Shown here: piece after piece, positions 9,587-59,511 of the stretch
Numbering within the stretch: position 1 is the stretch's first letter
How the letters are laid out: each line of letters opens with the position of its first letter
Assembly (NCBI RefSeq): GCF_008087345.1
Contig: NZ_VHIB01000015.1
Coordinates: 1-64,000, forward strand
Direction of reading: 5' to 3'
Source: Nocardioides caldifontis
GTDB taxonomy: Bacteria; Actinomycetota; Actinomycetes; Propionibacteriales; Nocardioidaceae
Length of the DNA stretch: 64,000 nucleotides
Notes under the pieces: generated by a model
The model's database searches: none
The model's input: only the letters and a program-made list of their open reading frames with translations
Told to the model about the DNA's origin: nothing
Position numbers and translations under genes: made by a program

Positions 9587-9604
9587 CTCCTCCTCGAGGA
9601 GGAG
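9587..9604. promoter_or_regulatory. 18-bp perfect dyad, copy 1 (module A operator candidate)
   Basis: CTCCTCCTCGAGGAGGAG is a perfect palindrome (8-bp arms, 2-bp centre). The identical 18 bp recur at 14675-14692 between the two kinase genes of the same neighbourhood. Its position upstream of the ABC exporter suggests binding by the LuxR-HTH regulator encoded at 15956. Confidence 0.72.
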
Positions 9605-9704
9605 ACGGCGGTCGTCCGCAGGGGGAGGTCGCTGCCGTTCCTCGGCGGCTGGTGCCAGCGGGAGAACCGTTCCGTCGGCCGAGGCGGGCGAGCCGCGCTC
9701 TCCC

Positions 9705-9710
9705 TAGCGT
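9705..9710 (+). promoter_or_regulatory. Probable -10 element for the ABC exporter operon
   Basis: TAGCGT in the context CCCTAGCGTC lies 46 bp before the GTG start. The same CTAGCGTC context occurs at 59561 before the MMPL gene and on the reverse strand at 31706-31711, so it looks like a house-keeping -10 of this genome. No clear -35 was seen. Confidence 0.5.
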
Positions 9711-9755
9711 CGTCGGTGCCGCAAGGAGCGGCGCAGACGACGTTGAGGAGGGACC

Positions 9756-10535
9756 GTGACCACGGTCGAGCAGGAGACGCGGGAGGCGACGAGCACGGGG
9801 GCCGTGGCCGCGCGATGCGAGGGGCTCACGAAGGTGTACGGCGACGGAGAGACCCGCGTCGTCGCGCTGGACGGGATCTCGGTGGCGTTCCCGAAGGGGC
9901 GGTTCACCGCCATCATGGGCCCGTCGGGCTCGGGCAAGTCGACGCTGATGCACGTCATGGCAGGGCTGGACACGGCCTCGTCCGGGCGCACCTGGATCGG
10001 CGACACCGAGCTCACGTCGCTGGACGACAAGCGGCTGACCCGGATGCGACGCGACCAGGTCGGCTTCGTCTTCCAGTCGTTCAACCTGGTCCCGACGCTG
10101 ACCGCCGCGGAGAACATCACGCTTCCGATGGACATCGCCGGCCGCAAGCCCGACCAGGAGTGGCTGGACAAGGTCGTCGAGACCGTCGGGCTGCGCGAGC
10201 GCCTCGGACACCGGCCCGCCGAGCTCTCCGGCGGTCAGCAGCAGCGGGTGGCGTGCGCCCGGGCGCTCGCCAGCCGGCCGGAGATCATCTTCGCCGACGA
10301 GCCGACCGGGAACCTCGACTCGCGCACCGGCACCGACGTGCTCGCGTTCCTGCAGATGTCGGTGCGGACCATGGGGCAGACCATCGTGATGGTCACCCAC
10401 GACCCCGTCGCCGCGTCGTACGCCGACCGGGTGCTGTTCCTCGCCGACGGCCGGATCGTCGACGAGATGGAGCAGCCCACCGCCGAGCGCGTCCTCGCCC
10501 GCATGGTGGCCTTCGACCGGAAGCAGGAGGGCTGA
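9756..10535 (+). CDS. ABC transporter ATP-binding protein (MacB/LolD-like)
   Basis: A 259-residue nucleotide-binding subunit of a MacB/FtsX-class exporter, acting on the inner face of the membrane. Visible motifs are Walker A GPSGSGKST (about 55-63), Q-loop FQSFNL, signature LSGGQQQRV, Walker B IIFADEPTG and H-loop VTHD. It starts at GTG 9756 after GGAGGGACC. The permease begins two bases after its stop. The 18-bp dyad upstream and the two-component genes downstream suggest it is switched on by that signalling system to remove an envelope-active compound (inference). Confidence 0.95.
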   Translation: MTTVEQETREATSTGAVAARCEGLTKVYGDGETRVVALDGISVAFPKGRFTAIMGPSGSGKSTLMHVMAGLDTASSGRTWIGDTELTSLDDKRLTRMRRDQVGFVFQSFNLVPTLTAAENITLPMDIAGRKPDQEWLDKVVETVGLRERLGHRPAELSGGQQQRVACARALASRPEIIFADEPTGNLDSRTGTDVLAFLQMSVRTMGQTIVMVTHDPVAASYADRVLFLADGRIVDEMEQPTAERVLARMVAFDRKQEG

Positions 10536-10537
10536 CG

Positions 10538-13072
10538 ATGCTGCGCACCGCGATCCGGAACCTGCTGTCCCACAAGCTCCGGCTGCTCCTCAGCGGCCTG
10601 GCCGTCGTGCTAGGGGTGGCGTTCATCTCCGGCACCATGACCTTCACCGACACGCTGCACCGCACCTTCACCGGCCTCTTCGAGGACGCCGCCGCGGACG
10701 TCAACGTCGAGCCGGCGTCGGCCTTCGGGGCCGGGATGACCGGTACCGGGATCGACTCCGCGCTGTCCTCCGTCCCTGCCGACCTCGTCGAGGAGGTCGG
10801 CGCGGTGGACGGTGTCGCGGCAGCGGAGGGCTACGTCGAGGCCGAGGGGGTCTACGTCCTGGACGCCGGCGGCGACGTGGCGGACACCGGTGGCGCCCCC
10901 GGCATCGGCATCAGCTGGCCCGGCGACGACGCGCTCAGCGCCGTGACCCTGGCCGACGGCCGCGCCCCGGCGTCAGCGGGCGAGGTCGCCCTGGACAGCG
11001 CGACCGCGGAGGAGCTGGGTCACCGCGTCGGTGACAAGATCACCGTGCTCACGACCGGCCCTCGCGTGGAGGCCGAGCTCGTCGGCACCTTCCGCTTCGG
11101 TGAGGACGGCGGCCTGGCCGGTGCCTCGATGACCGCCTTCGACCCGGCCACCGCGCAGTCGCTGCTGCTCGAGGACGGGCGGTTCACCGGCATCAGCGTG
11201 GCCGCCGAGGACGGCGTGACCCACGCGGAGCTCGCCGACCGCATCGAGGCAGTGGTCGGGGACGACTACGACGTCGCCACCAGGGCCGAGCAGGCGGCCG
11301 ACCAGGCCGCGGCCCTCGAGGACCAGCTGTCGTTCATCGACACCTTCCTGCTGGTCTTCGCCGGTGTCGCGCTCTTCGTCGGCAGCTTCATCATCCTGAA
11401 CACCTTCTCGATGCTGGTCGCCCAGCGCACCCGCGAGCTCGCGCTGCTCCGGGCCCTCGGCGCCGGTCGCCGGCAGATCACCGCGTCGGTGCTCGTCGAG
11501 GCGCTGGTGCTCGGGCTGCTCGGGTCCACCGCCGGGCTGGTGACCGGTTTCGGCCTCGCGCAGGGGCTCAAGGCCCTGTTCGGCCAGCTCGGGGTGACCC
11601 TGGACGGCGGGCTCGTGCTGAGCGCCGGCACGGTGACCTGGTCCTACGTCGTCGGCGTGGGGATCACCCTGCTGGCGGCGTACCTCCCGGCGCGTCGGGC
11701 GGCCAAGGTCGCTCCGGTCGCGGCGATGCGGGCCGACCTCGTCAGGACCGCGCGGCCGCTCCTCGTCCGGACGGTGGTGGGCACCGTGCTCGCGGCCACC
11801 GGCCTGGCAGCTCTCGCCGCTGGTTCGCTCGGTGACGGCGTCGGTGGGCTGGTGGGGCTCGGCGCCCTGGCCCTTCTCGTGGGCGTGATCACCCTCAGCC
11901 CGGTGCTCGCCGTGCCGTTCATCCGGCTCGTCGGCGCCGTCCTGCCGCGGCTGGCCGGGAGGACCGGCCACCTCGCCCGGGAGAACGCGCTCCGGAACCC
12001 GCGTCGCACCGCGGCGACGTCGTCGGCCCTGATGGTCGGGCTCGCGCTGGTCACCGGGTTCAGCATCATCGGGGCGTCGGCCCGTGCGTCGATCGACGAG
12101 CTCGTCGACGACGTGCTGGAGGCGGACTACGTGGTCTCGACCTCGGTCGGGCAGCCGTTCACCGCGGCGGTCGCCGAGGAGCTCGCGCAGGTCGACGGCG
12201 TCGCCTCCGTGACCCAGGAGCGGTACGGCACCGCCAGGTTCGACGGCGAGGAGTCGTTCTTCGTCGCCTACGAGCCGGACGCACTCGCCGACGCGCTCGA
12301 GGTGACCTTCGTCGACGGTGCGGTCGAGGGGCTCGCCGGGGAGGGTCTGCTCGTCTCCGACGAGACCGCCGAGACCCAGGGGCTCGCGGTCGGCGACCAG
12401 GTGGAGTTCCTGGTGCAGAACGGCGAGTCGCGCGAGCTGCGGGTCGGCGGGGTCTTCGAGGACAACAGCGCGCTCGGTCCCTACCTCGTCTCGATGGACA
12501 CCTACTCCGCGACCGGCGGGGCCCCGCTCGACCGGTACGTCTACGTGGGCGTGGAGGACGGCGTGGACGCGTCGGCCGTCGAGGCCGGGATCGAGGACGT
12601 CGTCGCGACCTACCCGGTCGTGGAGCTGAAGGACATCGAGGGGTTCAAGGACGAGCAGCGCGGCTCCATCGACCAGATGCTGATGCTGATCAACGCGTTG
12701 CTCGCGCTCTCGGTGCTCATCGCGGTGCTGGGCGTGGTCAACACCCTGGTGCTGTCGGTCATCGAGCGCACCCGGGAGCTCGGGCTGCTGCGGGCGCTCG
12801 GCATGAGCAGGCGGCAGGTCCGCCGGCTGGTCCGGCTGGAGTCCGTGGTGATCTCGGTCTACGGCGCGGCCCTCGGGCTCGGGCTCGGCGGCGTGCTCGG
12901 GCTGGCGTTGACCCGGTTCCTCCGGAGCCAGGGGCTGACCGTCACCGCGGTGCCCGGCGGGCAGCTGGCGCTCTTCCTGGTGCTCGGTGCGGTGATCGGG
13001 GTGGTCGCGGCCGCCTTCCCCGCGCGCCGGGCCGGGCGGCTCAACGTCCTGGACGCGATCGCGACGGACTGA
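10538..13072 (+). CDS. ABC transporter permease, FtsX/MacB type, duplicated
   Basis: An 844-residue membrane protein with an N-terminal transmembrane helix (LLLSGLAVVLGVAFISG) followed by an extracytoplasmic MacB-like domain. It has two FtsX permease cores, each announced by the conserved motif before the last helices (RTRELALLRALGAGRRQI near 300 and RTRELGLLRALGMSRRQV near 755), giving about ten membrane segments. Both core units sit in one chain, the usual form in actinobacteria. It is translated with the ATPase (TGACGATG spacing). Its mRNA probably ends at the strong hairpin 13094-13153. The substrate is unknown. Confidence 0.94.
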   Translation: MLRTAIRNLLSHKLRLLLSGLAVVLGVAFISGTMTFTDTLHRTFTGLFEDAAADVNVEPASAFGAGMTGTGIDSALSSVPADLVEEVGAVDGVAAAEGYVEAEGVYVLDAGGDVADTGGAPGIGISWPGDDALSAVTLADGRAPASAGEVALDSATAEELGHRVGDKITVLTTGPRVEAELVGTFRFGEDGGLAGASMTAFDPATAQSLLLEDGRFTGISVAAEDGVTHAELADRIEAVVGDDYDVATRAEQAADQAAALEDQLSFIDTFLLVFAGVALFVGSFIILNTFSMLVAQRTRELALLRALGAGRRQITASVLVEALVLGLLGSTAGLVTGFGLAQGLKALFGQLGVTLDGGLVLSAGTVTWSYVVGVGITLLAAYLPARRAAKVAPVAAMRADLVRTARPLLVRTVVGTVLAATGLAALAAGSLGDGVGGLVGLGALALLVGVITLSPVLAVPFIRLVGAVLPRLAGRTGHLARENALRNPRRTAATSSALMVGLALVTGFSIIGASARASIDELVDDVLEADYVVSTSVGQPFTAAVAEELAQVDGVASVTQERYGTARFDGEESFFVAYEPDALADALEVTFVDGAVEGLAGEGLLVSDETAETQGLAVGDQVEFLVQNGESRELRVGGVFEDNSALGPYLVSMDTYSATGGAPLDRYVYVGVEDGVDASAVEAGIEDVVATYPVVELKDIEGFKDEQRGSIDQMLMLINALLALSVLIAVLGVVNTLVLSVIERTRELGLLRALGMSRRQVRRLVRLESVVISVYGAALGLGLGGVLGLALTRFLRSQGLTVTAVPGGQLALFLVLGAVIGVVAAAFPARRAGRLNVLDAIATD

Positions 13073-13093
13073 CGCCGGCAGCAGGGCCACTCG

Positions 13094-13153
13094 GACGGGC
13101 AGCTCTCCCGGACCGGGACCACGAAACGGTCCCGGACGGGGGAGCTGCCCGTC
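13094..13153. terminator. Bidirectional terminator hairpin
   Basis: A 12-bp outer stem (GACGGGCAGCTC with GAGCTGCCCGTC) encloses an inner CGGGACC/GGTCCCG stem. It lies between the convergent permease and PAS/GAF kinase genes and can serve both strands. Confidence 0.75.
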
Positions 13154-13164
13154 GGTGCGTCCCC

Positions 13165-14655
13165 TCAGCCGAGCGGCACGTCGAGGGACACGGTCGTCCC
13201 CTCGCCCGGGCGGCTGCGGACCGACAGCGTGCCGCCGCACAGCTCGGCTCGCTCGCGCATGGTGTGCTGCCCGAACCCGTCGGTCGTCCCCGGCTCGAAC
13301 CCGAGGCCGTCGTCGTGGATCCGCACCGACACCCGGTCGCGGTCCGCGGTCACGTGGACCGACGCGTTCGAGGCCCGGGCGTGCTTCACCGTGTTGTGCA
13401 GCGCCTCGCGGACGATGCGGGGGACGTGCTCCCCGAGCGGTGCCGGCAGGAGCGGGAGGTTGGCCGGCGAGAACGACACCTCGACCGGCAGCCCCTCCAG
13501 GCGGGTGATCTCGGCCGCCAGCGCGCGCAGCGACTCGCCCACGTCGCTCCCGACGTCCTGCGACCGGCGCAGCTCACCCACGAGCTCGCGCAGCTCGGAG
13601 GTCGCCTGCCGGGAGAGCAGCTCGAGGTCCTCGGCCGCCTCGAGGGCCAGGTCGCGGTCGTCGGCGCCCAGCGCCCTGCGGATCACCTGGGCCCGCGCGT
13701 GCACGGAGAACAGCGCCTGGCTGACCGAGTCGTGCAGGTCCCGGGCGATGCGGTTGCGCTCGACCAGCGCCGAGTGCTGGGAGACCTGCTCGCGGACCAG
13801 CTCCGCGCCGATCACCACCCCAACCTGGTCGGCCACCGACGACCAGTGCGCCACCTCCGACTCCGACGGGGAGGTGAGGGCCGGTGGCAGGGCCACGACC
13901 AGGCACCCGGCGGTGCGGTCGTCGCAGCGCACGCCGAACAGCACCGCACCGCTCCACGCGTCCGCCAGGAGCGGCGCCCACCCCGCGGTGCGAGGACCGG
14001 CGGCGAAGCGGTCGGCGGCGTCCGAGAGGTAGACGCTGCGTCCGCGGGCCAGGTCGCCGGTCCCGGGGAGGTCCGACAGCAGGGCGCCGCTCGCGGCGAC
14101 CGCGTCGGCCAACCCCGCCTCGCACCTCGCGGCCGCGGCGACCTGCAGCTCGCCGGTGGGTCCCTCGAGCAGGAGCGCGGCCGCCGTGGCGCGGGTGCCC
14201 GCGACGGCGTCCCCGAGCAGCGACGCGAGCGGGACGGCGCGGTCCCCGGTCGACGGGGCCGGGCGTCGGGGCAGCGGGAGCGGCGTCGTCTCGTGGAAAA
14301 TCGCCGGCGCCAGCTCGACGCCGTCCACCTCGACCGCGGTGCCCGACCAGGTCATCCGCCGCTCGGTGCCGTCGGGCCGGAGGACCGTGTTGGTGTAGAA
14401 CTCCGTGTCGCCCTCGCGCTGCTCGTCCTCGAGCCGGAGGAGCACCTCGCGTTCGTGGTCGGGGAAGTGCTGGAGGTAGTCGCGGCCGCGGAGCTCGTCG
14501 AACCTCCGCCCGAAGAGCCGCTCCCCGGCGGGGTTGAGGTAGACCCAGCTGTGGTTGGGCCCGGTCACCGCCACGCCGTACGACGTGGTCTCCAGGATGT
14601 CGAGGAGCGCCTCGATGCCGAGGGAGCGGAGCACCTCCCGACCGCTGTCCGTCAC
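13165..14655 (-). CDS. PAS/GAF sensor histidine kinase, HisKA_3 type
   Basis: A 496-residue soluble sensor. A PAS domain (about 15-125; NHSWVYLNPAGERLFGRRFDELRG) and a GAF-like domain (about 150-285) precede the HisKA_3 dimerisation domain with phospho-His308 in ARDLHDSVSQ. The ATPase domain has HNTVKHA, DDGLGF and TMRERAELCGG. All catalytic boxes look intact. It starts with GTG at 14655, only 19 bp from the module A dyad, and is divergent from the degenerate kinase and LuxR-HTH regulator. Because the kinase beside that regulator lacks the phosphorylated His, this protein is the best candidate to phosphorylate it (inference). Confidence 0.92.
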   Translation of the reverse strand: MTDSGREVLRSLGIEALLDILETTSYGVAVTGPNHSWVYLNPAGERLFGRRFDELRGRDYLQHFPDHEREVLLRLEDEQREGDTEFYTNTVLRPDGTERRMTWSGTAVEVDGVELAPAIFHETTPLPLPRRPAPSTGDRAVPLASLLGDAVAGTRATAAALLLEGPTGELQVAAAARCEAGLADAVAASGALLSDLPGTGDLARGRSVYLSDAADRFAAGPRTAGWAPLLADAWSGAVLFGVRCDDRTAGCLVVALPPALTSPSESEVAHWSSVADQVGVVIGAELVREQVSQHSALVERNRIARDLHDSVSQALFSVHARAQVIRRALGADDRDLALEAAEDLELLSRQATSELRELVGELRRSQDVGSDVGESLRALAAEITRLEGLPVEVSFSPANLPLLPAPLGEHVPRIVREALHNTVKHARASNASVHVTADRDRVSVRIHDDGLGFEPGTTDGFGQHTMRERAELCGGTLSVRSRPGEGTTVSLDVPLG

Positions 14656-14673
14656 CGGCGTAGTGTCCCAACC

Positions 14674-14693
14674 CCTCCTCCTCGAGGAGGAGG
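14674..14693. promoter_or_regulatory. 20-bp perfect dyad, copy 2 (module A operator candidate)
   Basis: CCTCCTCCTCGAGGAGGAGG contains the same 18 bp as 9587-9604. It sits in the divergent promoter region, 19 bp from the reverse-strand kinase start and 63 bp from the forward kinase start. Its centre is about 73 bp before the presumed leaderless start at 14757. Confidence 0.75.
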
Positions 14694-14742
14694 CGGCTCC
14701 GGAAGTTCCGCCCGGCGGCCGAGGTGTGGCGGCAGCCCCACG

Positions 14743-14748
14743 CCTACC
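14743..14748 (+). promoter_or_regulatory. Likely -10 for a leaderless transcript
   Basis: TACCGT ends 8 bp before GTG 14757, which has no Shine-Dalgarno sequence. That is the spacing expected for a leaderless mRNA in actinobacteria. Confidence 0.45.
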
Positions 14749-14756
14749 GTGGGCGC

Positions 14757-15959
14757 GTGATCAAGGCCGAGCTCCCGCTGTGGCGCGCCCTGCGCCGCCC
14801 CGAGGTGCTCGACCCCCTCATCGCCGCGGTGCTGACCTTCTCGGCGGTCCACGCGCTCTGGAACCCGTCGCCGATCGTCGACTACGACTTCCGGGACCCC
14901 GACCTGCTCGGGGTGCTCCTGGCGGTCGTGCCGACCCTGGCCGTGGCGTTCCGCGGGCGGTGGCCGCTGGCGGTGCTGGTGGTCTCGGCCGTCACGTCGT
15001 TGCTCCACGCCCAGCTCGGCTACAGCCAGGGGCTCGGCAGCTTCGCGCCGCTGCTCCCGCTCTACACGGTGGCCGCGCACCGGTCGTTCCGGGTCAGCGG
15101 CGCGGCGGCGCTGGCGACCATGGCCCTCGTCTCGGTGTTCCTGGCGACGGGGCCGCTCGAGCCAGGGCTCGGTGACTGGTCCTCGAACCTCTTCGTGGTG
15201 GCCACGACCTGGGCGATCGGCCGGTCGGTGCGGAGCCGACGGACCAGCCAGCACCACCTCGAGCAGCGCAACCTCGCGCTGCTCGAGGCGCGCGACGCCG
15301 AGACCCAGCGGCTGGTCGTCGAGGAGCGCGCTCGCATCGCCCGGGAGCTGCAGGACCTGGTGGCGCACCACCTGACCGAGGTGGGTGTGCAGGTCGCCGC
15401 GGCCCGGCGGATGGTGCGGCGGGACCCGGCCACCGCGGAGGAGCTGCTGCTCGGCGCGGAGAGCACCGGGCGCGCGGCCCTCGAGGAGATGCGGCGGGCC
15501 GGGGGAGTGCTGGACACCCCGGGCGCGGGCGCCGACCTGCGTCCGCAACCAGGCCTCGACGAGCTCGACCGGCTCGTCGAACGGGAGCGCGCCGCGGGCA
15601 CGGAGGTCGTGCTCCGCACCGAGGGGCACCCCGTGCACGCCCCGGCCGGTGTCGGGCTCACGGCGTACCGCTTCGTCGAGGAGGCCCTCCGGCACCTGCG
15701 CGACGACGGTGCCTCACGCGGCGAGGTCCGCGTGAGGTGGGAAGAGTCGCGGCTCGGGCTCGTCGTCGCGGGCCGCGAACGGAGCCGGGTGCGGTGGCAC
15801 GACGGCGCGGGCGACGACGCGAACGAGCTGGACGAGCTGGACGGCCTGCGGTCGCGGATCGCGTTGTACGGCGGGGAGCTGCACGTGTCCTGGCACCCGG
15901 ACGGCGGGCTCCGGCTGGAGGCGTCCTTCCCCCTCACCACGAAGGAGATCAACGCATGA
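14757..15959 (+). CDS. Degenerate membrane histidine kinase (phospho-His replaced by Gln)
   Basis: A 400-residue protein with an N-terminal four-to-five-helix membrane domain (LIAAVLTFSAVHALW, LLGVLLAVVPTLAVAF, LLPLYTVAAH, AALATMALVSVFLATG) and a coiled linker. The HisKA_3-like helix reads ARELQDLVAHHLTEVGVQV: the phospho-accepting His of the ELHD motif is Gln199. The ATPase region keeps AYRFVEEAL but has lost the N-box Asn (EALRHLRDDGA) and the G-boxes. It therefore cannot autophosphorylate in the normal way and may act as a scaffold, inhibitor or sensor for the neighbouring system. Its stop overlaps the regulator start (ATGA). GTG 14757 is chosen for the leaderless promoter spacing; GTG 14724 is an alternative. 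Confidence 0.85.
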   Translation: MIKAELPLWRALRRPEVLDPLIAAVLTFSAVHALWNPSPIVDYDFRDPDLLGVLLAVVPTLAVAFRGRWPLAVLVVSAVTSLLHAQLGYSQGLGSFAPLLPLYTVAAHRSFRVSGAAALATMALVSVFLATGPLEPGLGDWSSNLFVVATTWAIGRSVRSRRTSQHHLEQRNLALLEARDAETQRLVVEERARIARELQDLVAHHLTEVGVQVAAARRMVRRDPATAEELLLGAESTGRAALEEMRRAGGVLDTPGAGADLRPQPGLDELDRLVERERAAGTEVVLRTEGHPVHAPAGVGLTAYRFVEEALRHLRDDGASRGEVRVRWEESRLGLVVAGRERSRVRWHDGAGDDANELDELDGLRSRIALYGGELHVSWHPDGGLRLEASFPLTTKEINA

Positions 15960-16624
15960 CCGTCCGTGTGCTGCTGGTCGACGACCAGCCCCTGCTCCGG
16001 ACCGGGTTCCGGCTGATCCTGGCCTCGGAGCCCGACATCGAGGTGGTGGGCGAGGCCGCCGACGGCGAGACGGCGCTGACCCAGGTCAAGGCGCTGCAGC
16101 CCGACGTGGTGCTCATGGACATCCGCATGCCTCGGCTCGACGGGGTCGAGGCGACGCGGCGCATCGTCGAGGCGCGAGGCGGCGAGGGTCCGCCGCGCGT
16201 CCTGGTCCTGACGACGTACGACCTCGACGAGTACGTGGTCGAGGCGCTGCGCGCCGGCGCCTCCGGGTTCCTGCTGAAGGACACCCCCGCCGAGAACCTC
16301 GTGGACGCCGTCCGCCTCGTCCACGAGGGCGACGCCGTGGTCGCGCCAGGGGTCACGAAGCGGCTGCTCGACCGGTTCGCCAAGCTGCTGCCGACCACCC
16401 GGCTCCCCGCGGCCGTGGTCGCCGAGGAGCTGACCGAGCGGGAGCGCGACGTCCTGCTGCTCGTCGCCCGAGGCATGTCGAACGCCGAGATCGCGAAGGC
16501 CCTCGTCGTCAGCGAGACCACGGTGAAGACCCACGTGAGCAGCGTGCTGGCCAAGCTGGGGCTGCGTGACCGGGTGCAGGCGGTCGTCTACGCCTACGAG
16601 TCCGGCCTCGTGACGCCGGGATGA
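15956..16624 (+). CDS. NarL/LuxR-family response regulator (module A)
   Basis: A 222-residue receiver plus LuxR-type HTH. The receiver has LLVDDQ, phospho-Asp55 in VVLMDIRMP and Lys in FLLKD. The DNA-binding part is LTERERDVLLLVARGMSNAEIAKAL followed by SETTVKTHVSSVLAKLGLRDR. It overlaps the degenerate kinase by ATGA, and the GNAT gene overlaps its own stop by ATGA. It is the best candidate to bind the paired CTCCTCCT-CG-AGGAGGAG dyads and control the ABC exporter and kinases (inference from position). Confidence 0.95.
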   Translation: MTVRVLLVDDQPLLRTGFRLILASEPDIEVVGEAADGETALTQVKALQPDVVLMDIRMPRLDGVEATRRIVEARGGEGPPRVLVLTTYDLDEYVVEALRAGASGFLLKDTPAENLVDAVRLVHEGDAVVAPGVTKRLLDRFAKLLPTTRLPAAVVAEELTERERDVLLLVARGMSNAEIAKALVVSETTVKTHVSSVLAKLGLRDRVQAVVYAYESGLVTPG

Positions 16625-18066: not shown

Positions 18067-18146
18067 CGCAGTCGCCTCCTTCTCCTCCGGGGATGGACGC
18101 GGACAAGGTGTCGAGCCGGTTAGTGCCTCACGGGAGACTCTCACCG

Positions 18147-22657: not shown

Positions 22658-24835
22658 TTACCGACTCGTGAGGGCGTACGCCGGCTCGGGCTCGGCCACC
22701 ACCTCGCCCCTGGAGGCCTGCGGGCGCGCCGGCCACCAGGACCGCTCGCCGAGCAGGACCAGCAGCGCCGGCAGCAGGACCAGCCGGATCAGCGTGGCGT
22801 CGAGGAGGATGGCCGCCGAGAGGCCGACGCCCATCGTCTTCATCTCGAGCATGCTCAGCGTCGCGAAGATGGCGAAGACCGAGACCATCACCGCGGCCGC
22901 GCTGGTGACCACCCCGGCGGTGTCCGCGATCCCCTTCTCGACGGCGAGCCGGGTCGGCAGCCCGCGGGCGACGTGCTCGCGGACGCGGCTGAGCACGAAG
23001 ACGTGGTAGTCCATCGACAGCCCGACGAGCACCACGAGCACGAACAGCGGCAGCCAGTCGATCACGAACCCGGGGCTGGTGAAGTCGAGGAGGTCGCTGC
23101 CCCAGCCCTCCTGGAAGACCAGGGTGAGCACCCCGAAGGCGACGCCGACGGAGGCGAGGTTCAGTGCACCGGAGACGACCGCGAGGACCACGCTGCGGAA
23201 CGTCACGACCATGATGAGCATCGTGAGCAGAAGCACGAACCCGACCACCAGCAGGAGCCGGCCGTCCTGGTTGTCTGCGAAGTCGAGGTTCGCGGCAGGA
23301 CCGCCACCGACGGCGTGCTCGGCGACGGCGTCCACACCGCCGAGGGTCGCCGGGACCACGTCCTGGCGGAGGGTCCGGATCGCGTCGTCGACCCGCTCGT
23401 CGGACTCCTCGAACGGCATCCCGAGGGTCAGCACGGAGGTCAGCCCGTCGTCCGACGTACGGACCGGGTCGTCGCCGACGACGAACTCGCCGGTGGCGCT
23501 CGCCTGACGGGCGACGTCGGCGAGCGCGGCGTCGACGGCGTCGCGGTCGGCCCCCGAGCGGGCCCGGACGACGACCTCGGCGGCGGCGCCGGCGTCCCCG
23601 GGGAAGTGCTCCTCGACCGCTCGCAGGGTCTGGACCTCCTCGATCGACGCGGGCAGCGTCTCGAGGGTCGCGGAGTGGGTGCGCATCGCGAACGCCGGCG
23701 CCGCGAGGAGCGCGACGACCACCGCCGAGAGCACCAGTGCCACGCGCGGGTGACGGACCACCGGGCCGAGGACGCGCGAGCTGATCCCGCCGCGGCCGAT
23801 CCGTCGGTTCAGCCGCCACAGCCCGGGGACGCGGGGGCGGTCGACCCACCGGCCGAGCTTGACCAGCAGTGCGGGGAGCACCGTGATCGACCCGAGCACC
23901 GCGACGGCGACGACGAGGATCGAGCCGACCGCCAGCGAGTCGAACGTGGCGTCGTCGACGACGAAGAGGCCGGCCATCGCGGCGATCACCGCGCCGCCCG
24001 AGACCAGGATCGAGTGGCCCGAGGTCTGGGCGGCGATCTCGACAGCGTCGCGGGTGCTGCGGCCGGCGGCCCGCTCCTCGCGCTCGCGCTTGAGGTAGAA
24101 CAGCGAGTAGTCGACGCCGACCGCCATCCCGATCAGCACGATCATGCTGCTGACCGTCCCCTCGGCGTGGACCAGGTGCGACAGCGGCGCCATCACGCCG
24201 ATCGTGGCGGCGACGCTGGTGGCGGCGAGCAGCACCGGGAGCCCCGCGGCGACCAGCGCCCCGAAGGCGAGCAGCATGAGGACGAGCGTGACCGGCAGGC
24301 TGATCCCCTCGGCCGCGCGGAGGTCCTGCTCGACCTGCTCGTCGATCCCCGCGTCGACCGTCACGCTCCCGGCCTGCCGGACCTCGAGCCCGGGGTGGTC
24401 GGCCTGCGCCTGGCGGGTCACCTCGCTCAGGCCGTCGGCGTCCTCGTCGGCCAGCTCGACCTGCACGAGCAGGGCCGACCGGTCCTGGTTCCACACAGGG
24501 TCGCCCACCCGGGCAACCCCGTCGGCGTCCGCGGCGGCCGCGGCCACCTGCTCCGCGGCCTCCTCGGCCTCGGCCCGGTCCGGCACGCCGGAGCGACCGG
24601 TCACCAGGACGTTCTCGGTCTCGGGGTCCTCGAGCCCACCCGCCTCGACCATCTCGTCGGCCCGCCCGGACTCGCCGAGCCGGTAGTCCGCGTCGGTCGT
24701 CTGCACGGTCGGGATCGAGACCGCCAGCCCGACCGCCACCGCGACCAGGGCGACCCACCCGAGGATCGCCCGCCACGGATGGCGTGCCGACCAGGTCGCT
24801 GCTCGCATCGGGATCGCTGTCAACGGGTTGCCCAC
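22658..24835 (-). CDS. MMPL/RND-family exporter (module B)
   Basis: A 725-residue membrane protein with the duplicated RND plan: helix 1 (ILGWVALVAVAVGLAVSI), an extracytoplasmic loop, helices 2-6 with GMAVGVDYSLFYLKREREE, a second loop, and helices 8-12 with VGLSMDYHVFVLSRVREH. Both proton-relay-type Asp-Tyr motifs are present. GTG 24835 has GAGGAG six bases upstream, so it is preferred to the internal ATG 24808. It is divergent from the kinase/regulator pair, sharing 147 bp that contain the GGTGGTGC-CA-GCACCACC dyad. Likely substrates are lipids or lipophilic drugs (family knowledge). Confidence 0.93.
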   Translation of the reverse strand: MGNPLTAIPMRAATWSARHPWRAILGWVALVAVAVGLAVSIPTVQTTDADYRLGESGRADEMVEAGGLEDPETENVLVTGRSGVPDRAEAEEAAEQVAAAAADADGVARVGDPVWNQDRSALLVQVELADEDADGLSEVTRQAQADHPGLEVRQAGSVTVDAGIDEQVEQDLRAAEGISLPVTLVLMLLAFGALVAAGLPVLLAATSVAATIGVMAPLSHLVHAEGTVSSMIVLIGMAVGVDYSLFYLKREREERAAGRSTRDAVEIAAQTSGHSILVSGGAVIAAMAGLFVVDDATFDSLAVGSILVVAVAVLGSITVLPALLVKLGRWVDRPRVPGLWRLNRRIGRGGISSRVLGPVVRHPRVALVLSAVVVALLAAPAFAMRTHSATLETLPASIEEVQTLRAVEEHFPGDAGAAAEVVVRARSGADRDAVDAALADVARQASATGEFVVGDDPVRTSDDGLTSVLTLGMPFEESDERVDDAIRTLRQDVVPATLGGVDAVAEHAVGGGPAANLDFADNQDGRLLLVVGFVLLLTMLIMVVTFRSVVLAVVSGALNLASVGVAFGVLTLVFQEGWGSDLLDFTSPGFVIDWLPLFVLVVLVGLSMDYHVFVLSRVREHVARGLPTRLAVEKGIADTAGVVTSAAAVMVSVFAIFATLSMLEMKTMGVGLSAAILLDATLIRLVLLPALLVLLGERSWWPARPQASRGEVVAEPEPAYALTSR

Positions 24836-24930: not shown

Positions 24931-24948
24931 GGTGGTGCCAGCACCACC
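24931..24948. promoter_or_regulatory. 18-bp perfect dyad (module B operator candidate)
   Basis: GGTGGTGCCAGCACCACC has 8-bp arms and a 2-bp centre, the same layout as the module A and C dyads but with a different sequence. It lies between the divergent MMPL and kinase genes and could control both. Confidence 0.65.
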
Positions 24949-24982: not shown

Positions 24983-26152
24983 GTGACCACCGAGACGAGC
25001 ACACCGGCCCAGCGCCGCCCGGGGCCCTGGCGGCTGACCGGGTACGCCGCCGTGCAGGTGCTGTCCGTGGTGCCGCTGATCGTGCTGCTCGTGCTCTGGA
25101 TCCTGGGGGCGGCGCTGGTCCTCGTCTGGGCGGGGCTCGCGATCCTCGCCGTCGCGGTGCCGGCGACCCGCTGGCTGGTCGGGGTGCACCGGCGGATGGC
25201 GGGCCGGGTGCTCGGGACGCCGCTGCCGGAGCCCTACGCCCCGGTGCCCCCGGGGCCCCTGGCATGGGTCCGGCCGGTGGTCTCGGACCCGATGACCTGG
25301 CGGGACCTCGGGTGGATCCTGGTCGCCACCACGCTCGGGTTCGCCGTCTCGCTGCTCGTGATCCTGCTCCTCCTCGTCGTCGTCACCGCGCCCGTCTGGT
25401 GGTTCGCCGCGCCCCCGCTGATGCGGCTGCGGTCGCAGGTCGACCGGTTCTTCCTGGCCTACAGCCGCACCGAGCGGCTCGAGCAGCGGGTGCAGGCGCT
25501 GACCGAGTCGCGCGCCGAGGTCGTCGACCACTCGGCCGCGGAGCTCCGCCGGCTCGAGCGCGACCTCCACGACGGCGCCCAGGCCCGGCTGGTCGCGCTC
25601 TCGATGAGCCTGGGGATGGCGGACGCGACGTTCGACCAGGACCCCGAGGCGGCGCGGAGGCTCGTGCGCGACGCCCGCGAGACCACCGCGGCCGCGATCG
25701 GCGACCTCCGGTCGGTGGTCCGCGGCATCCACCCACCGGTGCTCGCCGACCGCGGGCTCGGCGGGGCGGTGCAGGCGGTGGCGCTCGACATGCCGATCCC
25801 GGTCGAGGTGCAGGTCCGGCTGCCCGGGCGGCCGCCCGCCCCGGTCGAGTCGGCGCTCTACTTCGCGGTCGCCGAGTGCCTGGCCAACGTCGGCAAGCAC
25901 GCCGGTGCCCGCCACGCCTGGGTGGGGCTGCGCCACGAGCGCGGGGTGCTCGTCGCGACCGTCGGCGACGACGGGAAGGGCGGCGCGGACCCGGCCGCCG
26001 GGACCGGGATGCTGGGGGTGAGGAGACGGCTCGCGGCCTTCGACGGCACGATGCGGGTGTCGAGCCCGGTCGGCGGGCCGACCCTGGTCACCCTGGAGGT
26101 CCCGTGCGCCTTGTCCTCGCCGAAGACCACGCCCTCCTCCGCGCCGGGCTGA
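24983..26152 (+). CDS. Membrane histidine kinase, HisKA_3 type (module B)
   Basis: A 389-residue kinase. Four membrane helices in two pairs (about 20-60 and 105-140) are followed by the dimerisation helix with phospho-His196 in ERDLHDGAQARLVALSM and an ATPase domain with ECLANVGKHA, GDDGKGG and GMLGVRRRL. GTG 24983 is chosen because GGGAGG lies nine bases upstream; the upstream in-frame ATG 24974 abuts that site and is less likely. Its 3' end overlaps the regulator gene by 49 bp. It is divergent from the MMPL exporter, which it presumably controls through the regulator. Confidence 0.9.
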   Translation: MTTETSTPAQRRPGPWRLTGYAAVQVLSVVPLIVLLVLWILGAALVLVWAGLAILAVAVPATRWLVGVHRRMAGRVLGTPLPEPYAPVPPGPLAWVRPVVSDPMTWRDLGWILVATTLGFAVSLLVILLLLVVVTAPVWWFAAPPLMRLRSQVDRFFLAYSRTERLEQRVQALTESRAEVVDHSAAELRRLERDLHDGAQARLVALSMSLGMADATFDQDPEAARRLVRDARETTAAAIGDLRSVVRGIHPPVLADRGLGGAVQAVALDMPIPVEVQVRLPGRPPAPVESALYFAVAECLANVGKHAGARHAWVGLRHERGVLVATVGDDGKGGADPAAGTGMLGVRRRLAAFDGTMRVSSPVGGPTLVTLEVPCALSSPKTTPSSAPG

Positions 26153-26745
26153 CCCAGGTGCTGGAGGGCGCCGGCTTCACGGTGCTGCACGCCGTCGACA
26201 ACGAGCCCGAGCTCCAGCGTGCCCTCCGGGATCCTTCGGCGGACGCCGCCGTGCTCGACGTACGCCTCCCGCCGACGCACACCGACGAAGGGCTCCGCGC
26301 GGCGATCGCGGTCCGCCAGGAGCGGCCGGGGTTCCCGGTGATGGTGCTGTCGCAGTACGTCGAGCAGCTCTACGCCCGCGAGCTGCTCGCCAGCGGCGAC
26401 GGCGCCGTGGGCTACCTCCTCAAGGACCGGGTCTCCGACGTCACCGAATTCGTCGAGGGGGTCCGCCGGGTCGCCGCGGGCGGGACCGTCCTCGACCCGC
26501 AGGTCGTCTCGACCGTGATGGCGCGCCGGCGGGAGGAGCCGCTGGACCGGCTGACCCCCCGCGAGCGCGAGGTGCTCGCGCTGATGGCGGAAGGCCGCTC
26601 GAACGCCGCCGTCGCGGCGCGGCTCGGCGTCACCGAGAAGGCGGTGCTCAAGCACGTCAGCAGCATCTTCGCCAAGCTCGACCTGCCGGTCGACGAGGAC
26701 GACCACCGAAGGGTGCGTGCGGTGCTGGCATGGCTGCACGTCTGA
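26104..26745 (+). CDS. NarL/LuxR-family response regulator (module B)
   Basis: A 213-residue regulator: receiver with LAEDHALLRAG, phospho-Asp52 in AAVLDVRLPP and Lys in GYLLKDR, then a LuxR HTH with LTPREREVLALMAEGRSNAAVA and EKAVLKHVSSIFAKL. GTG 26104 follows GGAGG and lies inside the end of the kinase gene, so the two are coupled. It is the natural candidate to bind the 24931-24948 dyad. Confidence 0.94.
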   Translation: MRLVLAEDHALLRAGLTQVLEGAGFTVLHAVDNEPELQRALRDPSADAAVLDVRLPPTHTDEGLRAAIAVRQERPGFPVMVLSQYVEQLYARELLASGDGAVGYLLKDRVSDVTEFVEGVRRVAAGGTVLDPQVVSTVMARRREEPLDRLTPREREVLALMAEGRSNAAVAARLGVTEKAVLKHVSSIFAKLDLPVDEDDHRRVRAVLAWLHV

Positions 26746-33055: not shown

Positions 33056-33097
33056 GTTGAGCCGCCCCTCGTGGCGCGCCACGAGGGGCGGCTCAAC
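33056..33097. terminator. 42-bp perfect palindrome between convergent genes
   Basis: Two 21-bp arms (GTTGAGCCGCCCCTCGTGGCG and its exact complement) abut with no loop. It sits between the ABM gene and the azoreductase gene and can end transcription on both strands. Its relation to the tandem units suggests a mobile or amplifiable repeat. Confidence 0.7.
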
Positions 33098-51971: not shown

Positions 51972-51983
51972 CCCGCTCCGGCG

Positions 51984-51999
51984 TGGAGCGATCGCTCCA
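51984..51999. promoter_or_regulatory. 16-bp perfect dyad near the LAL regulator
   Basis: TGGAGCGATCGCTCCA (7-bp arms, 2-bp centre). A half-site TTGGAGCATCG follows at about 52016. It lies 111 bp upstream of the YdhR-like gene, whose neighbour is the LuxR/LAL regulator. Confidence 0.5.
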
Positions 52000-52109
52000 T
52001 GCCGCCCGCCCTCGGTTTGGAGCATCGTGCCGATGAGCGGCAGGTACCCGCGCTCTTAGCGTCGTCGACGACCGCAGTCGACATCGACGACACGACAAGG
52101 AGAGCTGCG

Positions 52110-54383: not shown

Positions 54384-54431
54384 GGACCGATGCTAGTGAC
54401 TGCCGGCCGTCGCTGGTCCGGACCAGCGGGC

Positions 54432-56921: not shown

Positions 56922-57083
56922 GACCCCGCACCCCTCGCGTGCCGCCCCGCCCCACCCCCACGATGGGAGCCGGCACGCTCCGTGGCGCATTCTCCACGGG
57001 ACCGTTCCGGTCCGGCAAGTCCGGGTACGAGGGGTGGACACTGATCTGCACCGATCTGGTGCGGACGAGCGCAGGGGGGGTCG

Positions 57084-57620
57084 ATGGTGCGGTTGGTGCT
57101 CGTCGCCGATACCCACGTGCCCAAACGGGCACGCGACCTGCCGGACGAGCTGTGGGCTGCCGTCGAACAGGCCGACGTCGTCCTCCATGCCGGCGACTGG
57201 GTCGAACCCGCGCTGCTCGACGAGCTCGAGCGCCGCTCGCGCCGGCTCGTCGCCGTCCACGGCAACAACGACGGGGCCGAGCTGCGGCGCCGGCTGCCGC
57301 TGGTGGCCCGGGCCGAGCTCGGCGGGGTGCGGTTCGCGGTGGTCCACGAGACCGGGGACGCCAAGGGCCGGGAGCGCCGCTGCGAGGAGGAGTACGACGA
57401 CGTCGACGTGCTCGTCTTCGGGCACAGCCACATCCCGTGGGACACCACGACCCCGCGCGGGCTGCGGCTGCTGAACCCCGGGTCGCCGACGGACCGGAGA
57501 CGCCAGCCGCACTGCACCTACATGACGGCCACCGCCGCGGACGGTCGGCTGTCCGACGTACGGTTGCACCGGCTGCCGCCGCGGACCGCCGCGCCGCGCC
57601 GATCTCGTCCTCTCGGGTGA
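57084..57620 (+). CDS. YfcE/MJ0936-type metallophosphoesterase
   Basis: A 178-residue phosphodiesterase-type protein: LVADTHVPK, VLHAGDWVEP, VHGNNDGAE, VVHETGD and FGHSHIPWD carry all metal ligands. It is cytoplasmic, acting on small phosphodiesters or nucleotides (family knowledge). The stop lies inside an operator-like dyad that precedes the kinase gene. Confidence 0.9.
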   Translation: MVRLVLVADTHVPKRARDLPDELWAAVEQADVVLHAGDWVEPALLDELERRSRRLVAVHGNNDGAELRRRLPLVARAELGGVRFAVVHETGDAKGRERRCEEEYDDVDVLVFGHSHIPWDTTTPRGLRLLNPGSPTDRRRQPHCTYMTATAADGRLSDVRLHRLPPRTAAPRRSRPLG

Positions 57621-57624
57621 GGCG
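57607..57624. promoter_or_regulatory. Degenerate copy of the module C dyad
   Basis: GTCCTCTC-GG-GTGAGGCG matches the perfect dyad at 59494-59511 at 13 of 16 arm positions with the same spacing. It is 30 bp upstream of the kinase start and covers the stop of the phosphoesterase gene, a position for autoregulation. Confidence 0.5.
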
Positions 57625-57654
57625 GCCGCCGAGCCGGCTTGCGACGATGCAGCC

Positions 57655-58815
57655 GTGAGGACGACTGCGCCGCCGGGCACCCCCGAGGGGCGGCTGCTCG
57701 ACGCCGCCGTGGCGCTCGTGGTCCTCGCCCTCTGCTGCCAGCCGCTGGTGCTGGAGGGGGACGCGCCGTGGTGGGGGTACGCCCTCGTGGCCGCGCAGAG
57801 CGTGCTGCTGCTCGGCCGGCGGGAGCTCCCGGTCGTCGCCAACCTGCTGGTCGCGGCACCCTCCGCGGCGTACGGCCTGACCGACCTGCCCGACCCCGCG
57901 GTCCCGTTCGGCGCGCTCGTCGCGGTCTACAGCACGGCCGCCTGGGCGGGGCGAAGGGCGGTGCACGTGACCGCCGTGCTGGTCGTCCTGGTGCTCACCG
58001 TGGTGCTCTTCGTCGACCGCGGCAACGACGTCGGCGACGACGTGCTGGTCCTCTACCTGACGTTCGCGACCGCCTGGCTCCTCGGCTACAGCGCTCGCAC
58101 CCGGCGTGAGCGGATCGCCGAGTCCGAGGAGCGGGCCCGCGAGCTGGAGCGCACCCTGGAGGCCGAGTCGCGGCGGCAGGCGCTCGAGGAGCGGCAGCGG
58201 ATCGCGCGCGAGATGCACGACGTGCTGACCCACTCGGTGAGCATGATCGCGGTGCAGGCCGAGGCCGGCCCGCTGGTCGCGCGGAAGGACCCGGAGGCGG
58301 CCGCGGCGATGTTCGAGACCATCAGCGGCAGCGCCCGGCAGACGATGACCGAGCTCCGCGGGCTGCTCGGGGTGCTGCGCGGCGACGACGGCGAGCCGGC
58401 CGCGCGGCTGGCCCCGCAGCCGACGCTCGAGCAGGTGCCGGCCCTCGTCGAGGAGGTACGCGCGGCCGGGCTCCCGGTCTCTCTGCAGGTCGAGGGCGAT
58501 CTCGCCGGCGCGGCGCCCTCGACGGGGGTGGCGGCGTACCGCATCGTGCAGGAGGCGCTGACCAACGCGCTGCGCCACGGGGACGGCTCCGGTGCGTCGG
58601 TGGCTCTCCGGCTCGACGGCGACGGGCTGGAGGTCGAGCTGGAGGTCGAGGTGGTGAGCGCCGGAGCGCCGCGGCCTGGGAGCGTGGAGGGACGAGGGGT
58701 GACGGGGATGCGCGAGCGGGCGGCCGCGGTCGGCGGCACGCTCGAGGCCGGGCCCGCGCCCCCGGGCTGGGCGGTCCGCGCCCGGCTGCCGCACGGCCGG
58801 CAGGAGCACCGGTGA
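57655..58815 (+). CDS. Membrane histidine kinase, HisKA_3 type (module C)
   Basis: A 386-residue kinase with four to five N-terminal helices (LLDAAVALVVLALCC, YALVAAQSVLLLG, VTAVLVVLVLTVVLFVD), a coiled linker, phospho-His188 in RIAREMHDVLTHSVSM and an ATPase domain with EALTNALRHG and GVTGMRERAAAVGG. Start is GTG 57655 and the stop overlaps the regulator start (GTGA). It is the first gene of the kinase-regulator pair followed by the MMPL exporter. Confidence 0.93.
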   Translation: MRTTAPPGTPEGRLLDAAVALVVLALCCQPLVLEGDAPWWGYALVAAQSVLLLGRRELPVVANLLVAAPSAAYGLTDLPDPAVPFGALVAVYSTAAWAGRRAVHVTAVLVVLVLTVVLFVDRGNDVGDDVLVLYLTFATAWLLGYSARTRRERIAESEERARELERTLEAESRRQALEERQRIAREMHDVLTHSVSMIAVQAEAGPLVARKDPEAAAAMFETISGSARQTMTELRGLLGVLRGDDGEPAARLAPQPTLEQVPALVEEVRAAGLPVSLQVEGDLAGAAPSTGVAAYRIVQEALTNALRHGDGSGASVALRLDGDGLEVELEVEVVSAGAPRPGSVEGRGVTGMRERAAAVGGTLEAGPAPPGWAVRARLPHGRQEHR

Positions 58816-59477
58816 CCCGGGTGCTGCTGGTCGACGACCAGGCGTTGGTACGCGCGGGGTTCCGGCTGATCCTCGAGGCGCAGGACGACCTCGAGGTGGT
58901 CGCGGAGGCGGCCGACGGGGCGCAGGCCCTGGCCCTGGCCGAGGAGCACGGTCCCGACGTCGTGCTGATGGACATCCGGATGCCGGTGCTCGACGGGATC
59001 GAGGCGACCCGGCGGCTCGTCGCGTCGCAGCCGGGGAGCCGGGTGCTGGTGCTGACGACGTTCGACCTCGACGAGTACGTCTACGACGCCCTGCTCGCCG
59101 GTGCCAGCGGGTTCCTCCTCAAGGACGTGAGCCGCGACGAGCTGGTCAGCGCGGTGCGGGTGGTCGCCGCGGGCGAGGCGCTCCTCGCGCCGACGGTGAC
59201 CCGGCGGCTGCTGGCCGACTTCGTGCGGAGCCGGCCACCCGCCGCGCCGACGCCCTCCCCCGGCGTGGCCGGGCTGACCGCGCGCGAGCAGGAGACGCTC
59301 GAGCTGCTGGCGCGCGGGATGTCGAACGCAGAGATCGCCGCCCGCTTCGTGGTCAGCGAGAACACGGTGAAGACCCACGTCGGCAACGTGCTGATGAAGC
59401 TCGGGCTGCGCGACCGCGTCCACGCGGTCGTCTACGCCTACGAGCACGGGCTGGTCCGCCCCGGCACCTCCTCCTGA
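58812..59477 (+). CDS. NarL/LuxR-family response regulator (module C)
   Basis: A 221-residue regulator with LLVDDQALVRAGF, phospho-Asp54 in VLMDIRMPVLDG, FLLKD and the LuxR HTH LTAREQETLELLARGMSNAEIA with SENTVKTHVGNVLMKLGL. It starts with GTG at the kinase stop. It closely resembles the module A regulator and presumably binds the GTCCTCAC-CC-GTGAGGAC dyad just downstream to control the MMPL exporter. Confidence 0.95.
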   Translation: MTRVLLVDDQALVRAGFRLILEAQDDLEVVAEAADGAQALALAEEHGPDVVLMDIRMPVLDGIEATRRLVASQPGSRVLVLTTFDLDEYVYDALLAGASGFLLKDVSRDELVSAVRVVAAGEALLAPTVTRRLLADFVRSRPPAAPTPSPGVAGLTAREQETLELLARGMSNAEIAARFVVSENTVKTHVGNVLMKLGLRDRVHAVVYAYEHGLVRPGTSS

Positions 59478-59493
59478 GGGGCGAGCGCTCGGC

Positions 59494-59511
59494 GTCCTCA
59501 CCCGTGAGGAC
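59494..59511. promoter_or_regulatory. 18-bp perfect dyad (module C operator candidate)
   Basis: GTCCTCACCCGTGAGGAC has 8-bp arms and a 2-bp centre. It lies between the regulator stop and the MMPL start, centred about 71 bp before the predicted transcription start. Confidence 0.75.

What the first reader, a model, noticed from the sequence alone, without database searches (positions are those of the whole stretch)
9587..59511. Three parallel kinase-regulator-exporter modules, each with its own 18-bp dyad of 8-2-8 design
Three HisKA_3 kinase / LuxR-HTH regulator pairs occur with exporters: module A (ABC, 9756-13072), B (MMPL, 22658-24835) and C (MMPL, 59599-61683). In each, an 18-bp dyad of 8-bp arms and 2-bp centre lies in an exporter or kinase promoter region, with a different sequence per module: CTCCTCCT-CG-AGGAGGAG, GGTGGTGC-CA-GCACCACC, GTCCTCAC-CC-GTGAGGAC. 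Sites in A and C recur once more near the kinase gene. The layout suggests paralogous circuits that diverged in operator code to avoid cross-talk. The dyads are read directly; regulator binding is inferred from position.
Basis: partly seen in the sequence, partly recalled or inferred. Interest (0 to 1): 0.85.

Follow-up and report, generated by a model that had tools for sequence, protein, structure and literature searches.

The report
Shared operator frame of exporter-linked two-component systems
Three sensor-regulator gene pairs beside membrane exporters in this actinobacterium carry short mirror-image DNA sites that look like the landing pads of their own regulators; the sites follow a layout known from E. 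coli NarL, recur in relatives, and change in step with the part of the regulator that touches DNA.

Summary
The dyads are real and at the stated coordinates. The A site occurs exactly twice in the 4.8 Mb genome, both in module A; the B site is unique. They are best read as NarL-type (7-2-7) operators, not 8-2-8.

B is conserved in orthologues with a divergent MMPL gene, at a nearly fixed distance from the kinase start codon. A is conserved in one close orthologue and, as a class, before kinases beside A-regulator homologues of other families (25 of 30 examined; 11 of 16 not seen beforehand).

A and C fit one operator class, learned blind from 127 related kinase promoters. Its sites tend to start 39-40 bp before the -10 box, centred near -43 on apparently leaderless genes. 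Operator differences follow recognition-helix differences (Mantel r=0.33, p=2e-4; flanking spacer not significant).

'Paralogous circuits with diverged operators' is partly supported. 'Diverged to avoid cross-talk' is not: A and C differ at only 3 of 14 positions.

Module A's membrane kinase has lost its phospho-histidine (Gln199); a canonical PAS kinase lies across the dyad. No binding was measured.

The parts
9587..9604 (.). A operator (exporter side), CTCCTCCTCGAGGAGGAG; 118 bp before a TAGCGT -10 candidate at 9705
9756..10535 (+). Module A ABC-exporter ATPase (MacB/LolD type)
10532..13072 (+). Module A FtsX/MacB-type permease
   Evidence: PF02687, PF12704
13165..14655 (-). Divergent PAS + HisKA_3 + HATPase_c sensor kinase with canonical His
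   Evidence: 50% identical syntenic orthologue in G059
14675..14692 (.). A operator between the two divergent kinase genes; centre -73.5 from the 14757 start codon
14706..14723 (+). Weak proximal class operator TTCCGCCCGGCGGCCGAG (6.1 bits), 39 bp before the -10 TACCGT (14745-14750), centre -42.5
14757..15959 (+). Module A membrane sensor, degenerate histidine kinase (Gln199 at phospho-His, His313 at N-box Asn); apparently leaderless
15956..16624 (+). Module A NarL-type response regulator
22658..24835 (-). Module B MMPL exporter, divergent from the kinase
24931..24948 (.). B operator GGTGGTGCCAGCACCACC (core GTGGTGC-NN-GCACCAC), centre -43.5 from GTG 24983
24983..26152 (+). Module B HisKA_3 sensor kinase (GTG 24983 preferred for the conserved spacing; ATG 24974 possible)
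26104..26745 (+). Module B response regulator (different NarL/MadR-like subfamily)
57604..57621 (+). C operator at the kinase promoter, CTCGTCCTCTCGGGTGAG, -51 from the start codon, 12.8 bits; hexamer GACGAT at +39
57655..58815 (+). Module C HisKA_3 sensor kinase
58812..59477 (+). Module C NarL-type response regulator
59468..59485 (+). Possible second, tandem class operator upstream of MMPL (12.5 bits), overlapping the regulator's stop
59497..59514 (+).
59599..61683 (+). Module C MMPL exporter

Best explanation
Each dyad is a NarL-type 7-2-7 operator bound by a dimer of the module's own phosphorylated LuxR-HTH regulator. At the kinase-regulator operons the operator replaces the -35 region (centre near -43, 39-40 bp from operator start to the -10 hexamer) of an apparently leaderless promoter, so the regulator activates its own operon from a class II position. 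Some promoters add a stronger operator about 30 bp further upstream (A: -73.5 plus a weak -42.5). The same operator near the exporter (A exact copy, C 14 of 14 outer positions, B one site between divergent genes) ties exporter expression to the same regulator. A and C are members of one operator class (nTCnnCCn-NN-nGGnnGAn) whose middle bases vary with the recognition helix; B is from another subfamily. In module A the membrane sensor is a pseudokinase; phosphate probably comes from the divergent PAS kinase, with the pseudokinase as sensor, partner or phosphatase. Shown by computation: conservation, spacing, covariation, degenerate catalytic residues. Inferred: binding, activation, leaderless transcription, phosphate source, exported substrate.
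For: B: of 20 orthologues with a divergent MMPL gene, 9 match the B site at >=16 of 18 and 11 at >=15, against 6 of 329 control promoters at >=15, mostly at the same distance to an AGGATG-like box and the start codon. A: same place in the syntenic G059 orthologue; class operators of >=9 bits in 25 of 30 kinase promoters of A_reg homologues outside the training family, vs 94 of 329 control promoters; counting only the 16 that I had not seen or picked beforehand, 11 of 16 (p=0.0014). C: MMPL and kinase sites identical at 14 outer positions; the G012 orthologue has class sites in both promoters, the kinase one at -52, the MMPL one 64 bp before TANNNT against 65 in the window. Class motif learned without position or -10 information: held-out AUC 0.64-0.76, p 2.6e-5 to 0.013. 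-10 hexamer at +39/+40 for 31 of 88 sites, no other offset above 3; controls 4 of 126. Operator vs recognition helix: Mantel r=0.33, p=2e-4, spacer r=0.07, p=0.13, holds without the largest clade. HTH index 29 vs half-site base 5: none of 40,000 permutations reached it, p=2.5e-5, 0.005 after Bonferroni for 210 pairs. Own operator recurs nearby in 7 of 38 loci vs 1 of 90 swapped. E. coli ogt has NarL 7-2-7 sites at -44.5 and -77.5 (passages of PMC7419079).
Against: No binding or expression data. Bare perfect 8-2-8 dyads show no excess across the A/C-type paralogues. 74 of 127 A/C-type kinase promoters lack a class operator with a well-placed TANNNT under the rule, and the window's own A and C are among these 74: A because its strong distal site outscores the proximal one, C because its hexamer is GACGAT. 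B_kin also has no TANNNT within +18 to +139. The exact A motif shows no clear excess over its reversed control across the class (by eye, columns not summed). A_reg homologues in named Streptomyces-type loci mostly show no readable kinase upstream (73 of 78), and only 3 of 78 an operator plus -10; L343, which has an adjacent kinase, scores only 7.8 bits and was not in the 30. Of the 16 unseen loci 5 had no site of 9 bits. The A site near the ABC genes is 118 bp from its -10 candidate, outside the usual spacings. In 2 of 20 B orthologues with divergent MMPL nothing better than 12 of 18 was found. Motif scores are not held out; only the -10 offset and the start-codon position are independent of training.
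Confidence: 0.78

Rival explanations
1. The dyads are chance palindromes of GC-rich DNA picked out by a reader looking for symmetry.
Against: Conservation at fixed positions, genome rarity, fixed -10 spacing, covariation with the recognition helix. B-type upstream regions do show an excess of perfect 7-2-7 (10 of 25).
Confidence: 0.05
2. The sites are operators but act by repression or are read by another regulator common to these promoters, not the cognate one.
For: Position near -43 could also block polymerase; in the window the A dyad would cover the -35 region of the divergent PAS kinase gene (start 14655), consistent with repression there (sequence, inference).
Against: Covariation with the adjacent regulator's own recognition helix but not with the spacer; NarL activates from -44.5 and -77.5 at ogt; the operator takes the place of a -35 element in the aligned promoters.
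Confidence: 0.17
3. Operators diverged specifically to insulate the circuits from cross-talk.
For: The operators read for 7 of the 19 own-genome A/C-type regulators all differ, and B is far from all; helix and operator change together.
Against: A, C and the C5:323925 paralogue differ at only 2-3 of 14 outer positions; drift after duplication would give the same covariation.
Confidence: 0.3

Closest known systems
E. coli NarL 7-2-7 operators, ogt promoter
   Same: Inverted 7-mers with 2-bp centre; sites at -44.5 and -77.5, close to A's -42.5 and -73.5 (PMC7419079, passages); NarL is the top NCBIfam hit of A_reg and C_reg, below its cutoff
   Different: Different half-site sequence; kinase operons appear leaderless; sites sit beside exporter genes, many paralogues with varying half-sites
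ChrSA-HrtBA and HrrSA of Corynebacterium glutamicum
   Same: Paralogous kinase-regulator pairs with an ABC (HrtBA) exporter and kinase cross-talk; a ChrS pseudokinase raised exporter expression through the partner kinase HrrS (PMC9491836, abstract and passages)
   Different: There the pseudokinase arose by a frameshift in the ATPase domain in laboratory evolution and kept its His; here Gln replaces His in two genera and the presumed partner is a divergent PAS kinase; substrate unknown here
MacRS of Streptomyces coelicolor
   Same: NarL-family regulator with membrane-protein targets and an established binding consensus (review PMC9739842, passages); that the consensus is a 7-2-7 repeat is recalled, the original paper was not held
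   Different: Different sequence (recalled); no exporter pairing recalled
M. tuberculosis DevR/DosR primary and secondary boxes
   Same: Strong distal plus weaker proximal site over the -35 region (recalled, not looked up)
   Different: Different palindrome and regulon (recalled)

Membership tests
NarL/FixJ-type response regulator | Receiver domain plus LuxR/GerE HTH | tested here: met
   PF00072 and PF00196 above gathering score in A_reg and C_reg and B_reg
NarL-type 7-2-7 operator | Two inverted 7-mers with 2-bp centre | tested here: met
   B orthologues keep GTGGTGC-NN-GCACCAC while the outer base varies; class motif
NarL-type 7-2-7 operator | NarL consensus heptamer TACYYMT (letters recalled; the paper's legend gives only the base codes) | tested here: not met
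   A and C half-sites TCCTCCT, TCACCCG, TCGTCCT carry C, not A, at the second position; B differs wholly. Some relatives read TACTCC
Class II activator site | Operator abutting or replacing the -35, fixed to the -10 | tested here: met
   Class: +39/+40 offset in 31 of 88 sites. In the window: A proximal site TACCGT at +39, weak site; C_kin only GACGAT at +39; B_kin no TANNNT, AGGATG-like box conserved
Class II activator site | Activation by regulator binding | not testable with these tools
   needs reporter or in vitro transcription
Cognate autoregulated two-component operon | Regulator specificity tracks operator | tested here: met
   Mantel tests on 31 paralogue representatives; A and C of the window are not among the 31
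Active HisKA_3 histidine kinase (module A membrane sensor) | Phospho-His, N-box Asn, G-boxes | tested here: not met
   Gln199, His313, Leu358 and Glu360 in A_kin; of 113 other kinases compared, 113 have His, 113 Asn, 112 and 112 Gly there (recount)

The most novel reading that the evidence does not exclude
A lineage-wide expansion of exporter-linked two-component systems uses one fixed promoter frame (7-2-7 operator centred near -43 on a leaderless kinase gene) in which the middle bases of the half-site are re-coded by the recognition helix, for example the residue after SE in SETTVK setting base 5, giving a natural, readable protein-DNA code; module A adds a naturally fixed pseudo-histidine-kinase that works through a divergent PAS kinase across the shared operator.
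Probability: 0.45. Interest if true: 0.75.

Novelty: new variant of a known kind. Interest (0 to 1): 0.56.

Why it matters
To my knowledge the operators of most NarL-type regulators in actinobacteria are unknown. A fixed promoter frame lets one read the operator of many paralogues straight from sequence, and the paired change of helix and half-site gives a set of natural variants for testing a recognition code and the cost of cross-talk between duplicated circuits. Module A offers a naturally occurring pseudo-histidine-kinase case.

Tried and rejected
Bare geometry test: perfect 8-c-8 dyads, centres 0 to 14, within 2.6 kb of 133 non-redundant A/C-type regulators: 22 non-coding hits at centre 2 against 11-26 at other centres, no excess. 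Upstream windows alone: 9 of 133 at centre 2 against 1-8 at the other centres from 0 to 12, and 15 of 329 in controls, no clear excess; the 25 B-type regions do show one (7-arm, centre 2: 10 of 25, others 0-6). So 'every paralogue has a perfect 8-2-8 dyad' was rejected and replaced by a motif model.

Genome-wide C-type hits with up to one mismatch: 7 places besides C; no A-, B- or C-type regulator beside them by comparison with the window's proteins, several inside genes; one lies between an MMPL-like and a HisKA_3 kinase gene and was not followed further.

So most are not orthologous modules.

Exact A motif across 394 genomes of the class: 61 genomes match, and the reversed control also matches many (columns not summed); only the places near A_reg homologues in G325 and G466 were followed.

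Rows dropped or chosen before counts: 133 A/C-type upstream regions cut to 127 with at least 200 nt; 207 regulators cut to 197 with a called gene and to 158 at 92% identity; 53 operators cut to 31 representatives below 80% identity for the Mantel test; recurrence test on 38 of the 53, those on loci of at least 6 kb. One search looked at 33 loci, 30 with an adjacent kinase: 10 loci already scanned, 3 of the 5 named loci looked at (L343 with a kinase and L345 left out), and 20 chosen by me from the 94 places, two of them known. Without those seen or known beforehand the count is 11 of 16; with L343 added to the 30 it is 25 of 31. One search counted the window's own kinases among the others; one search recounts without them. 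In one search the residue table was sorted wrongly because of undefined values; one search replaces it. One search stopped with an error after its C-orthologue part and the first B rows; one search repeats the B part and runs the rest.

Structure prediction was not run; it would not decide binding.
Full report
OBSERVATION. The A dyad occurs only at 9587 and 14675 in the 4.8 Mb genome and B only at 24931. The case therefore rests on conservation, position and covariation.

MODULES. A: ABC ATPase 9756-10535, FtsX/MacB permease 10532-13072, a PAS/HisKA_3 kinase on the minus strand 13165-14655, and a membrane HisKA_3 sensor plus regulator 14757-16624. B: MMPL 22658-24835 divergent from kinase 24983-26152 and regulator 26104-26745. 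C: kinase 57655-58815, regulator 58812-59477, MMPL 59599-61683. The genome has many paralogues: 19 A/C-type regulators at E<=1e-40 (only the 20 best of 93 candidates were scored) and 3 B-type at 1e-45 (20 of 89 scored).

MODULE B. The regulator has clear orthologues: 80 of 149 genomes of the family match at E<=1e-45. I examined the 29 best orthologue loci besides the window (L087-L115). Of these, 20 have a divergent MMPL gene in the fetched flank; 9 of the 20 carry the B site at 16 or more of 18 positions and 11 at 15 or more; 2 of 20 (L098, L104) show nothing better than 12. The 9 loci without an MMPL gene in the flank reach at most 13. Control promoters reach 15 or more in 6 of 329. In most of the matching loci the site keeps its distance to an AGGATG/AGAATG box and to the start codon (about 33-36 bases after the site, read). 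The outermost base often changes (GGTGGTGC..GCACCACT), so the core is 7-2-7. An exact 18 of 18 site also stands before a homologous kinase in another family (L259); of 18 class-wide loci shown there besides three known ones, L250 (the window's family) has 17 and the other 16 have 11-15.

MODULES A AND C: A SHARED CLASS. I collected regulators of the A/C type from the family (158 non-redundant regulators, 133 of A/C type). A palindromic motif search on 127 upstream regions, given no position or -10 information, found nTC[CG]nCCn-NN-nGGn[CG]GAn; trained on half of 44 clusters it separated the held-out half (22 clusters) from 329 control promoters with AUC 0.757, 0.672, 0.712 and 0.642 (p 2.6e-5, 0.0035, 0.00043, 0.013). 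Two facts that the training did not use support it. First, of 63 best sites of at least 10 bits, 20 lie at -54 to -49 from the start codon, against 3 of 83 in controls. Second, of 88 sites of at least 8 bits, 31 have TANNNT starting at +39 or +40 and no other offset exceeds 3; controls give 4 of 126. Together 53 of 127 kinase promoters have operator plus well-placed -10 against 12 of 329 controls, though here the operator score is not held out. The other 74 do not, and under that automatic rule the window's A and C are among the 74: in A the strong distal site outscores the proximal one (which does have TACCGT at +39), in C the hexamer is GACGAT. With the -10 directly before the start codon the transcripts look leaderless, and the operator centre lies near -43.

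In that register the kinase-promoter site 57604-57621 (12.8 bits, -51) equals it at all 14 outer positions in opposite orientation. The distance to the MMPL -10 (TAGCGT) is 65; in the G012 orthologue it is 64 and its kinase site is at -52 (10.3 bits). A second class site, 59468-59485, lies 29 bp upstream. C was tested on this one orthologue; a second near relative (G019, L132) gave a 13.8-bit site outside the usual spacing.

MODULE A ELSEWHERE. In G059 (regulator 80% identical) the syntenic divergent PAS kinase and sensor flank CTCCTCCTTTCGGAGGAG; the exporter promoter is off the contig. In other families of the class, A_reg homologues of 63-74% identity that keep an adjacent kinase have class operators of at least 9 bits in 25 of 30 promoters, against 94 of 329 controls. 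This set was partly chosen after sites had been seen; of 16 loci not seen beforehand 11 have one (p=0.0014), and L343, left out, has 7.8 bits. The nearest TANNNT is 61-65 bp from the top site in 17 of the 25 and 40 in 5; near relatives are among them and the controls come from the window's own family. One Streptomyces locus (S. spinosisporus, L344) has a single CTCCTC-type site between divergent kinase and ABC genes. Against this: 73 of 78 named Streptomyces-type homologues examined show no readable kinase H-box upstream and only 3 of 78 an operator plus -10, and the exact motif shows no clear excess class-wide (by eye). In the window the A kinase promoter has a strong site centred at -73.5 and a weak one at -42.5 whose -10 is at +39, much like the NarL sites at -44.5 and -77.5 of E. 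coli ogt (passages of PMC7419079).

OPERATOR CODE. Among 31 representative regulators with a -10-anchored operator, operator distance follows recognition-helix distance (Mantel r=0.33, p=2e-4), while the adjacent 18-nt spacer does not (r=0.07, p=0.13); correcting for whole-protein distance leaves r=0.29, p=4e-4. Leaving out the largest clade gives r=0.37, p=2e-4 for operator and r=-0.02 for spacer. The strongest of 210 residue-base pairs is HTH index 29, the first T of SETTVK in A, with half-site base 5 (none of 40,000 permutations reached it, 0.005 after Bonferroni): Thr goes with T (19 of 22 half-sites), Ala mostly with G (15 of 26). In the 25 class-wide operators 42 of 50 half-sites have T at base 5; the helices printed for 11 such homologues all read SETTVK. 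The motif itself favours T there, so this is only mild support. Regulators with TTKTHV have TCnGTC- or TCATTC-type half-sites.

CROSS-TALK. Operators were read for 7 of the 19 own-genome A/C-type regulators. Over 14 outer positions A differs from C at 3, the C5:323925 paralogue differs from A and from C at 2 each, the C8:128719 paralogue from A at 8, and B from all class sites at 8-14. Divergence among A/C-type operators is graded, so insulation is not shown. The operator near the regulator also recurs in the neighbourhood more than swapped operators do: 7 of 38 loci at 4 or fewer mismatches against 1 of 90.

PSEUDOKINASE. Of 113 other kinases compared all have the phospho-His and the N-box Asn; A_kin has Gln199 and His313 there, and Leu358 and Glu360 where 112 of 113 have Gly. 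Pfam finds no HATPase_c in it. The G059 orthologue also has Gln at the His position but keeps the N-box Asn. In the class-wide homologues 25 of 30 read His and 5 were unreadable. The divergent PAS kinase is canonical. By analogy with ChrS/HrrS (PMC9491836, abstract and passages), the pseudokinase may act with or on the second kinase; this is inference.

LITERATURE. In the rows listed by the searches (several lists were cut) I saw no paper whose title or shown abstract describes this operator class or a helix-operator covariation in these paralogues; only the passages cited were read. Subscription papers are largely not held.

VERDICT.

Noticed in passing
window 14757-15959: Degenerate histidine kinase: Gln at the phospho-His site, also in the G059 orthologue, beside an intact divergent PAS kinase (13165-14655).
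   Followed up: partly
window 14655-14692: The A dyad would cover the -35 region of the divergent PAS kinase gene, suggesting repression there while activating the other side; the spacing is not clearly kept in G059.
   Followed up: partly
L127 1440-6399 (G000 C1): An MMPL-like gene and a HisKA_3 kinase gene flank an enoyl-CoA hydratase gene that holds a near-copy of the C dyad (position 3979); no regulator of the A, B or C type beside them.
   Followed up: partly
L036, L041, L050 upstream of the kinase: A perfect ATCAGACC-NN-GGTCTGAT dyad in kinase promoters of another regulator clade.
   Followed up: no
L133 7509-7526 and 7561-7578: Two perfect GTCGTCCA..TGGACGAC dyads 52 bp apart before another gene, not at the kinase promoter.
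   Followed up: no
window 33068-33085: Perfect 8-2-8 dyad between convergent genes, terminator-like by eye.
   Followed up: partly
L127 650-671: Run of G followed by a run of C upstream of a TetR-like (by eye) and an MMPL-like gene.
   Followed up: no
L259: Exact B operator in another family with no MMPL gene found within the fetched flanks.
   Followed up: no
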